64,000 bases of DNA from Blautia sp. Lineage in GTDB: Bacteria; Bacillota; Clostridia; Lachnospirales; Lachnospiraceae. Position 1 is the first letter of the stretch, and each line of letters opens with the position of its first letter. The stretch spans positions 18,074-82,073 of the forward strand of contig JAFTPT010000021.1 in NCBI GenBank assembly GCA_017463155.1. Direction: 5' to 3'. Positions 19,119 to 19,960 of the stretch are shown in pieces. The notes beneath the pieces are model-generated. The model did not search any database. It was not told the origin of the DNA and worked only from the letters and a program-made list of their open reading frames with translations. The translations under genes were made by a program, and so were the position numbers.

Positions 19119-19192
19119 GGAAAAGAGAGGGGGCGTTTCTCTGTCTTGTTAGCAAAAGCAAACAAGACAGAGAAACGCTCCCTCTCTTTTCC
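19119..19192. repeat. Palindromic repeat, diverged copy 2
   Basis: The palindrome runs from GGAAAAGAGAGGGGGCG to its near-perfect complement ending CTTTTCC. It matches the family in architecture and in the core TCTTGTT/AACAAGA, but both arms have changed together compared with the other copies. It lies between the BIG2 gene and the duplicated ssrA 3' end and could end both transcripts. Confidence 0.9.
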
Positions 19193-19221
19193 AGATGCCT
19201 CTAATGGACCTGGCGGGAATC
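19192..19221. repeat. ssrA: Direct repeat: extra copy of the ssrA 3' end
   Basis: These 30 bases are identical to 19355-19384, which cover the last 17 bases of tmRNA (minus strand) and 13 bases beyond. The copies are 163 bases apart. The extra copy joins directly to palindromic repeat copy 2. It may be an attachment-site scar or a local duplication. Confidence 0.85.
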
Positions 19222-19302
19222 CCGCCGGCGCCCAAGGCGCCTTTCAGGCCGCGTCGGCGTCGAAGGTCCACCGGACCTTCTCCTTCCGCATGCGATGCAT
19301 GC
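19212..19302. repeat. Run of five perfect hairpins, each with a 3-base loop
   Basis: Five successive perfect inverted repeats are seen: GGCGGG-AAT-CCCGCC (19212-19226), GGCGCC-CAA-GGCGCC (19227-19241), GCCG-CGT-CGGC (19248-19258), GAAGGTCC-ACC-GGACCTTC (19262-19280) and GCATGC-GAT-GCATGC (19288-19302). All have a 3-base loop. They lie between the two copies of the ssrA 3' end. No known element explains them. Confidence 0.85.
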
Positions 19303-19331
19303 TCCCTCCTTGTTCGATACCCGCCAAATCC

Positions 19332-19365
19332 AAAGAGGCACCTGCACTTGCGTACAGATGCCTCT
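19332..19365 (-). terminator. Probable tmRNA terminator
   Basis: On the minus strand AGAGGCA (19365-19359) and TGCCTCT (19340-19334) form a stem with an 18-base loop, followed by a short T run. It begins three bases after the tmRNA 3' end. Confidence 0.5.
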
Positions 19366-19384
19366 AATGGACCTGGCGGGAATC
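19355..19384. repeat. ssrA: Direct repeat: native copy at the ssrA 3' end
   Basis: This partner of 19192-19221 spans the tmRNA acceptor/T-arm end and part of its terminator stem. Confidence 0.85.
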
Positions 19385-19711
19385 GAACCCGCGTCCGAAA
19401 GTCTATCCCCTGGGCTTCTTCCATCACAGTCGGTGGTTTGACATTCCCTCTATGCAGCGCCCTCCGACAGGCTCAGCATTTCAGTAGCTTCATGATACAT
19501 CTGACGGGGCAAAGCTTACCCGCCAAGGTTTCTCACATCGTCGACGCCAGGTTCTCCCCGTGTGAGTGCGGGAAGGCTGACGAGCAGCCTCAGGCTGCTA
19601 ACGCGTAACTTTCGTCTGCGTTTATATTTAATTGCCCGGTTATTACGCAGTCTGGGCGGCTGCGGATGGCTTCCCCAACTTCAAAACCCCCGTCGAAACC
19701 AGTACAAGCCC
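19368..19711 (-). ncRNA. ssrA: tmRNA (SsrA)
   Basis: The 344-base transcript frees stalled ribosomes and tags their products for proteolysis. The 5' end GGGCTTG pairs, with G-U pairs, to CAGGTCC near the 3' end, which carries the tRNA-like T arm CGGGTTCGATTCCCG. CCA is not encoded. The tag frame reads GCA GAC GAA AGT TAC GCG TTA GCA GCC TGA, giving ADESYALAA followed by stop, at about 19610-19581. The LAA end is the usual ClpXP degron. The strong promoter, the terminator and clpX in the same region fit an active gene. Confidence 0.95.
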
Positions 19712-19775: not shown

Positions 19776-19823
19776 ATTTATGAGAATCCGTGCTTTTGTA
19801 TTTATGAGAATCCGTGCTTTTGT
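19776..19823. repeat. Two exact tandem copies of a 24-base unit
   Basis: The unit beginning ATTTATGAGAATCC is repeated exactly at 19776-19799 and 19800-19823. It lies just upstream of the tmRNA -35 box, between that promoter and palindromic repeat copy 3. It could bind a regulator or be a simple slippage duplication. Confidence 0.85.
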
Positions 19824-19892
19824 GATCAGACGATTCATGATATGCTGAATACGATCGGATTGTATTGGCAGACACAACGAAAGCGCGGGGAA

Positions 19893-19954
19893 GACAGGGG
19901 ACGGTTCTGTGTCTTGTTTGACAAATCAAACAAGACACAGAACCGTCCCCTGTC
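19893..19954. repeat. 62-base palindromic repeat, copy 3
   Basis: The 29-base arms match those of copies 1 and 4, apart from a changed loop region (ACAAAT replaces ACTCGT), so the apex still pairs. It lies between the divergent tmRNA and dtd promoters. Confidence 0.95.
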
Positions 19955-19960
19955 TTTCCC

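What the first reader, a model, noticed from the sequence alone, without database searches (positions are those of the whole stretch)
19212..19302. Five consecutive perfect hairpins, all with 3-base loops, between two copies of the ssrA 3' end
Seen directly: inverted repeats with arms of 6, 6, 4, 8 and 6 bases, each with exactly three unpaired bases, follow one another in about 90 bases. The first is a collapsed form of the tmRNA T arm (GGCGGG-AAT-CCCGCC in place of the normal T stem and 7-base loop). Random sequence should not give five in a row with the same loop size. Inference: either a structured RNA/DNA element read from the plus or minus strand, a binding array, or the trace of repeated fold-back DNA synthesis. 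I know of no described family with this form.
Basis: partly seen in the sequence, partly recalled or inferred. Interest (0 to 1): 0.7.

Follow-up and report, generated by a model that had tools for sequence, protein, structure and literature searches.

The report
Hairpin cassette inserted at tmRNA gene
The five hairpins are part of a very short piece of DNA inserted at the end of a tmRNA gene; relatives with the same fold but different stem letters sit behind many tRNA genes in other Clostridia, and the family looks like an undescribed kind of mobile cassette.

Summary
In detail: five perfect 3-base-loop hairpins (arms 6, 6, 4, 8, 6) in 91 nt; 0 of 20,000 shuffles reach five. Read on the ssrA (minus) strand they lie in a 163-bp unit: ssrA tail, terminator, 'X' (an inverted copy of the ssrA T-arm), AAGGAGGGA, hairpins, second ssrA tail. 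Units of this architecture lie behind tRNA-Ser, Arg, Gly, Gln, Val and Pro genes of other Clostridia, some in tandem; the 16 units with both ends in reach are 163-206 bp and begin at the T-loop, GTTCG|A. In 27 aligned arrays the stems covary (54 double-change cells, shuffled mean 9.0). X matches its own target tRNA (25 loci, 0 of 20,000 permutations). Loops of hp1, hp4 and hp5 on the tRNA strand are often cGNAg/cGNNAg (45 of 80; other strand 0), loops known from extra-stable DNA mini-hairpins. Some X sites lead to defence genes (R.PabI-type restriction-modification, TIR, AAA/DUF4276). Best reading: a non-autonomous integrative cassette family at tRNA/tmRNA genes, moved in trans, probably integrating as a folded single DNA strand with X as partner strand (inferred). 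No Rfam family matches; nine literature searches showed no description. No recombinase identified; no activity tested.

The parts
19368..19711 (-). ssrA (tmRNA) gene, target of the insertion; intact
   Evidence: ARAGORN; Rfam RF00023, 147.6 bits, (19365-19711)
19221..19383 (-). the inserted unit, 163 bp, from the crossover in the T-loop (GTTCG|ATTCCC) to the second tail
   Evidence: direct repeat
19355..19384 (-). ssrA 3' end next to the gene, copy 1 of the 30-nt direct repeat
19334..19365 (-). terminator-like hairpin after ssrA (14-nt arms, 4-nt loop)
   Evidence: repeat I6
19312..19332 (-). X: inverted partial copy of the ssrA T-arm and acceptor stem
   Evidence: repeat I2
19303..19311 (-). 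invariant block AAGGAGGGA of the family
   Evidence: alignment A1
19288..19302 (-). hp1, GCATGC-ATC-GCATGC
19262..19280 (-). hp2, GAAGGTCC-GGT-GGACCTTC
19248..19258 (-). hp3, GCCG-ACG-CGGC (GCCGACGTGGC in most relatives)
19227..19241 (-). hp5-like hairpin, GGCGCC-TTG-GGCGCC
   Evidence: [quoted passage not shown]
19212..19226 (-). junction hairpin, GGCGGG-ATT-CCCGCC, made of the unit's right end and the second tail; particular to the window
19192..19221 (-). displaced ssrA 3' end, copy 2 of the direct repeat
19206..19311 (-). match of covariance model R1 (69.4 bits; the window is one of its 27 training rows)
   Evidence: without the window in the model, sequence-only E 3.3e-7 over 19311-19248

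Best explanation
A non-autonomous integrative cassette of 163 bp sits in the T-loop of ssrA. It carries its own copy of the ssrA 3' end and a terminator, so ssrA stays whole, and the displaced original 3' end marks its far side (shown by sequence). It belongs to a family of units behind many tRNA genes whose inner part, AAGGAGGGA plus several hairpins, is conserved as a fold (shown). The folding strand is the tRNA-sense strand (supported by loop types), probably as single-stranded DNA (inferred). Proposed mechanism (inferred): a recombinase supplied in trans, most simply a tRNA-specific integrase of another element, joins a folded single strand of the cassette to the T-loop by one strand exchange, as for the CTXphi attP hairpin or integron attC. 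Tail and X pair to make the recombination site. X is complementary to the target on both sides of the crossover (GTTCG|ANTCCC), although the cassette's own strand left of the crossover is unrelated (..AA|ANTCCC); this is expected if only one strand is exchanged and X is the strand on which the incoming tRNA strand must anneal. The hairpin array would protect or present the single strand. Longer relatives carry genes, several of them defence genes.
For: Direct repeat and intact ssrA. Junction GTTCG|A in 16 of 16 units with both ends in reach, right end ..AA in 15 of 16, the window being the exception (28 of 39 X places had a T-loop in reach, 12 of these no second tail within 320 nt). Covariation in 27 arrays: 97.0% of cells pair, 54 double-change cells against a shuffled mean of 9.0, 0 of 500. 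X fits its own target: 196 of 250 positions over 25 of the 39 X places, permuted mean 151.9, sd 6.7, 0 of 20,000. Control: of 63 tRNA/tmRNA genes in 47 loci not known to hold arrays, one has at least 9 nt of complement to its own T-arm within 110 nt, and it proved to be a tandem unit at tRNA-Pro. cGNAg/cGNNAg loops in 45 of 80 hp1, hp4 and hp5 hairpins on the tRNA strand, 0 of 80 on the other; such loops give very stable DNA mini-hairpins (PMC4686876, passages). In a DNA-parameter fold of the circle junction 12 of 16 keep at least 6 tail:X pairs. Same restriction-modification pair after X at tRNA-Ser in one genome and tRNA-Arg in another. CTXphi attP has a fold of two inverted sites with homology on one side only (PMC5357621, passages).
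Against: No recombinase, circle or empty site was found; the integrase gene near the same tail in L162 belongs to a separate element. hp2 has 0 of 27 such loops, the window's own hairpins have none, and 14 of the 80 loops are GNRA, common in RNA. Folding z-scores do not separate strands: RNA -2.95 sense, -4.32 antisense; DNA -4.20, -4.26. 4 of 16 circle junctions keep fewer than 6 tail:X pairs. L199 and L203 have arrays without a good X (6 and 0 nt). The evidence for movement between tRNAs within a genome is modest (168 of 5000 shuffles). X sites without an array exist (11 of 39).
Confidence: 0.45

Rival explanations
1. Ordinary double-stranded site-specific integration: the unit is a minimal, integrase-less island (MITE-like) moved by a T-loop-specific tyrosine or serine integrase in trans. 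X and the array are an accessory part of attP, for example binding sites.
For: The island signature is classical, and tandem integrase-less islands at ssrA are known in Dehalococcoides, there with a serine recombinase (PMC3146451, PMC4383910, passages). A phage-type integrase gene ends about 110 nt before the same tail in L162.
Against: It does not explain why X follows the target across the crossover while the cassette's own strand there does not, nor loops favourable on one strand only.
Confidence: 0.27
2. The array is a structured RNA: X is a 5' guide that pairs with the tRNA gene or with the tRNA, and the hairpins are its scaffold; it guides insertion or regulates the tRNA.
For: Guide-like target match followed by invariant unpaired blocks and covarying stems.
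Against: A terminator-like hairpin stands between tRNA and array; gene-bearing units such as L130 have X but no array; GNA triloops and GN[CT]A tetraloops are not typical of RNA (recalled). No expression data could be examined.
Confidence: 0.15
3. Y1/HUH-type single-strand transposition (as in IS200/IS605, recalled): the unit is inserted 3' of GTTCG, recognised through base pairing with X.
For: Hairpins, single-strand loop types and a guide-like pairing.
Against: The unit restores the tRNA with its own tail, which points to tRNA-specific integrases; no Y1 transposase was looked for.
Confidence: 0.1
4. One reading: hairpins and inverted T-arm arose by template switching during repair and have no function.
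For: Perfect inverted repeats and an inverted T-arm beside a palindromic terminator.
Against: Same order of motifs, invariant blocks and covarying stems in 27 arrays, and T-loop-exact boundaries.
Confidence: 0.03

Closest known systems
Integrative islands in tRNA/tmRNA genes (Islander type; Dehalococcoides ssrA islands)
   Same: Insertion in the T-loop, target restored by an element-borne 3' end, displaced fragment as direct repeat, tandem islands; integrase-less members known.
   Different: 163-206 bp in the 16 tabulated units instead of kilobases, no integrase, conserved hairpin array, X. Islander rejects candidates under 2 kb or without an integrase.
CTXphi attP (IMEX) single-strand integration
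   Same: Two inverted sites about 90 nt apart fold to a recombination site with homology on one side of the crossover only (PMC5357621, passages).
   Different: Target is a tRNA T-loop, not dif; no phage genes; tail-to-X distance here includes a terminator hairpin; mechanism here inferred.
Integron gene cassettes (attC)
   Same: Small cassettes, palindromic site recombined as a folded strand, tandem accumulation, varied cargo (recalled).
   Different: Cassettes sit at tRNA genes, carry a tRNA tail, and the order of the inverted boxes differs by eye; no integron integrase was looked for.
MITEs and REP elements
   Same: Short, without genes, palindromic, repeated.
   Different: Site-specific in tRNA T-loops with restoration of the target; several hairpins with covarying stems.

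Membership tests
Integrative island in a tRNA/tmRNA gene | target gene restored by the element and displaced fragment in direct orientation | tested here: met
Integrative island in a tRNA/tmRNA gene | carries an integrase gene (Islander filter), at least 2 kb | tested here: not met
   unit is 163 bp; mechanical ORFs of 92 and 137 aa run across it, but hp1 length varies as 7, 8, 15, 16, 17 and 18 nt among arrays, so no frame is kept
CTXphi-type element (IMEX) | two inverted sites that fold to a recombination site | tested here: inconclusive
   tail and X pair in the DNA MFE of 12 of 16 circle junctions; folding in the cell not testable
CTXphi-type element (IMEX) | dif-like sites used by XerCD | tested here: not met
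   the insertion point is a tRNA/tmRNA T-loop in the 16 units
Integron gene cassette | attC boxes and an integron integrase | not tested
   box order looks reversed by eye (motif recalled); integrase not searched
Known Rfam RNA family | match at gathering score | tested here: not met
   Searches (window; L001, L065): only tmRNA and tRNA reach it; sub-threshold matches there are mostly microRNA models on a palindromic repeat
DNA mini-hairpin (GNA/GNNA loop, two or more G-C pairs) | loop and C-G closing pair | tested here: inconclusive
   45 of 80 hp1, hp4 and hp5 hairpins of the family have C(GNA)G or C(GNNA)G, hp2 0 of 27, and the window's own hairpins none (definition); the number of G-C pairs was not tallied

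The most novel reading that the evidence does not exclude
A separate class of mobile cassette in Clostridia that integrates as a folded single DNA strand into tRNA T-loops, carries the complement of its own target (X) as the strand that tests homology, restores the tRNA, piles up in tandem like integron cassettes and shuttles antiphage genes between tRNA sites.
Probability: 0.35. Interest if true: 0.9.

Novelty: new variant of a known kind. Interest (0 to 1): 0.75.

Why it matters
If right, tRNA genes of some gut Clostridia act as integron-like docking sites for tiny cassettes that island finders of the Islander type filter out (under 2 kb, no integrase), and some defence genes use the same door. 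It makes testable whether single-strand integration, known from integrons and CTXphi, also happens at tRNA genes, and whether a cassette can carry the complement of its target as part of its recombination site. A covariance model (R1) now exists with which they can be counted.

Tried and rejected
The 171-bp stretch against phages and plasmids gave short matches only; best E among the listed rows 0.1 (20 of 27 and 20 of 84 records listed). A 32-nt consensus gave 3 plasmid and 11 phage records, best E 3. Viral contigs: the 19-mer of hp2 gave one locus, in unrelated DNA by eye; two X-type patterns gave none; X plus GCCGACG gave 35 loci, judged by eye to be chance, without tRNA prediction. The ssrA-type X in 397 family and 391 class genomes found only the window; those two patterns could not match most tRNA-type X. 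Of the 36 X places, L120 and L140 look like chance hits in coding sequence; so does L135. No empty site was obtained: mostly hit the tRNA gene, without synteny. Energy z-scores do not decide strand or nucleic acid.

Rows dropped: of 39 X places, 28 had an array and 11 not; L152 was left out of A1, leaving 27, with right ends trimmed at the tail. One search used the 25 of 39 with a T-arm found within reach. In one search, 11 of 39 had no T-loop string in reach; for L126, L159 and L166 the string used was probably not a tRNA. The G.T/A.C count (8 and 0, 588 Watson-Crick, 5 other) comes from a script that picks the best hairpin; the alignment fold shows one C.A cell at each of two pairs, so I lean on the loops more than on the wobbles.

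Full report
Observation. The five hairpins are exactly as described. None of 20,000 dinucleotide shuffles gave five, and outside the locus no 91-nt stretch of the window exceeds four. The two ssrA 3' ends are real, and ssrA is intact on the minus strand. Between the hairpins and ssrA lies an inverted partial copy of the T-arm (19312-19332, 86% over 21 nt), here called X.

From one locus to a family. The core of X plus AAGGAGG, searched in the species genomes of genome contigs, occurs at three other places, all within about 250 nt downstream of ssrA in Clostridia and on the same strand. One of these genomes (G860) has two further exact copies of the X motif, behind tRNA-Val and, about 310 nt away, tRNA-Gln. 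At tRNA-Val the architecture is that of the window: tRNA, terminator, X, AAGGAGGGAG, a hairpin with a 3-nt loop, CGGAAG, a hairpin with loop GGT, GCCGACGTGGC, more hairpins, then a second tRNA-Val 3' end. A looser pattern in 398 genomes of G860's family gave 36 places in 22 genomes, against 4 places for the reversed control pattern (it contains the 150-genome draw). A class sample of 391 genomes gave 3 places in 2 genomes, control 4. So the family is rare overall and concentrated in some groups. In the window's genus 2 of 64 genomes match: the window's, and G084, where X stands at a contig end so that an array could not be seen; a record with the same flank, L057, is titled uncultured Blautia. 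Target genes named by ARAGORN: tRNA-Ser (GGA, CGA), Arg (ACG, CCG, TCT, CCT), Gly, Gln, Val, Pro and tmRNA.

Anatomy. Of 39 X places, 28 had a T-loop string in reach and 16 of these a second tail within 320 nt. In 16 of 16 the left junction is GTTCG|A; in 15 of 16 the right end reads ..AA before the second tail, the window (GGCGGG) being the exception; these units are 163-206 bp. Variants found in another way give 159-313 bp when the tail is added to the spacing. Tandem units occur. In L115, L117 and L146 the terminator next to the tRNA differs from the one after the second tail, so the unit brings its own; in L122 and L118 the repeat runs through the terminator (51 and 91 nt).

The fold. Alignment A1 of 27 arrays gives an RNAalifold consensus with 21 pairs, 11 of them with double changes. 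With hp1 added, 97.0% of cells pair and 54 cells have changes on both sides (shuffled mean 9.0, 0 of 500); sliding the partners by 1-3 columns leaves 34-48% paired. Related sequences can exceed such shuffles, as the tool warns. 45 of 80 hp1, hp4 and hp5 hairpins have C(GNA)G or C(GNNA)G loops on the tRNA strand and 0 of 80 on the other; hp2 has 0 of 27. Such loops make unusually stable DNA mini-hairpins (PMC4686876, passages), and several hp1 are literally GCGAAGC or GCGAAAGC. This favours single-stranded DNA without proving it: 14 of the 80 loops are GNRA, common in RNA, and energy z-scores do not separate strands. The window is a divergent member: a sequence-only model built without it still finds it (E 3.3e-7, 19311-19248, next best 4.2), but its 3' part does not align and its loops are not GNA/GNNA. 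It is the only R1 match in its genome at E up to 10.

X follows its target. For the 25 of 39 X places with a T-arm in reach, X matches the complement of its own target better than of the others (196 of 250 positions; permuted mean 151.9, sd 6.7; 0 of 20,000). X was part of the search that found most of these, so two further looks: of 10 loci found with a 2-kb query in which X is only a small part, 8 have at least 9 nt of exact complement to their own T-arm within 110 nt, while L199 (6) and L203 (0) do not. For common T-arms the other loci's T-arms match about as well; the clean cases are L200 (15 nt, others at most 7) and L204 (12 nt, others at most 7). As a control, of 63 tRNA/tmRNA genes in 47 loci not known to hold arrays, one has such a complement; that locus, L187 at tRNA-Pro, turned out to hold the unit (tail, terminator, X, hp2-like hairpin, second tail, second X).

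Cargo and movement. The same pair of R.PabI-type restriction enzyme (Pfam E 6.2e-44 and 2.5e-38) and methyltransferase stands after X at tRNA-Ser in G865 and at tRNA-Arg in G931 (the methyltransferase is named by PADLOC, E 1.4e-69, Pfam being weak); in G865 it is bounded by a second tail 2.39 kb on. X at ssrA of G860 precedes a gene with a CAP12/TIR domain (E 9.9e-12), and L161 has an AAA ATPase and a DUF4276 gene between tRNA-Arg and an X-array at the second tail (PADLOC's best name is HEC-01, but the ATPase matches 114 models). Other X sites precede ordinary-looking genes (L112, L131, L055), and whether those genes belong to a unit is unknown. Arrays in one genome at different tRNAs are more alike (8 pairs, 0.821) than arrays at one tRNA in different genomes (39 pairs, 0.747; 168 of 5000 shuffles as large): modest evidence for movement between tRNAs.

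Mechanism. The island signature is classical (PMC4383910, PMC3146451, passages). Added here are the size, the conserved folded strand and X. X is complementary to the target on both sides of the crossover, whereas the cassette's own strand left of the crossover is unrelated to the target. A one-strand exchange on a folded substrate would need just that, and the CTXphi attP hairpin has the same one-sided homology (PMC5357621, passages). The recombinase is unknown: a phage-type integrase gene (PF00589, E 9.2e-12) ends about 110 nt before the same tail in L162 but belongs to a separate element, and the ssrA islands of Dehalococcoides use a serine recombinase. Shown: insertion point, family, covariation, X-target match. 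Inferred: single-stranded DNA, strand exchange, mobilisation in trans, role of the array.

Novelty. No Rfam family reaches its gathering score on the array (for the window, for two loci). Nine completed literature searches showed no description in their listings; passages of four papers were read. The library holds open-licence PMC papers only, so a description elsewhere is possible.

Noticed in passing
window 19119-19192 and about 19890-19959: Two copies of a long palindromic repeat (35-nt arms at the first) flank the ssrA region. A query covering the first gives 57 matches in the genome (both strands counted, one of them the window itself), so it is a dispersed MITE- or REP-like family; the first copy directly abuts the displaced ssrA tail.
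   Followed up: partly
window 19776-19823: A 24-nt sequence (ATTTATGAGAATCCGTGCTTTTGT) is repeated head to tail just upstream of ssrA (read).
   Followed up: no
L021-L048 (ssrA 3' flanks of genus members): By eye the sequence just downstream of ssrA differs among nearly all genus members shown (L037 and L038 are alike), as expected of an integration hot spot.
   Followed up: no
L160:3025-9925: Two X-arrays 6.8 kb apart at one tRNA-Ser-CGA, with sugar-transport and sugar-metabolism genes (by eye) between them: a possible larger composite unit.
   Followed up: partly
L186, L192, L194, L203, L204: Diverged arrays with other sequences after X (for example AACGAGATTCGG or CCTGAGAGGGTGAG) at tRNA-Ser and tRNA-Pro genes: the superfamily is wider than the aligned 27.
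   Followed up: partly
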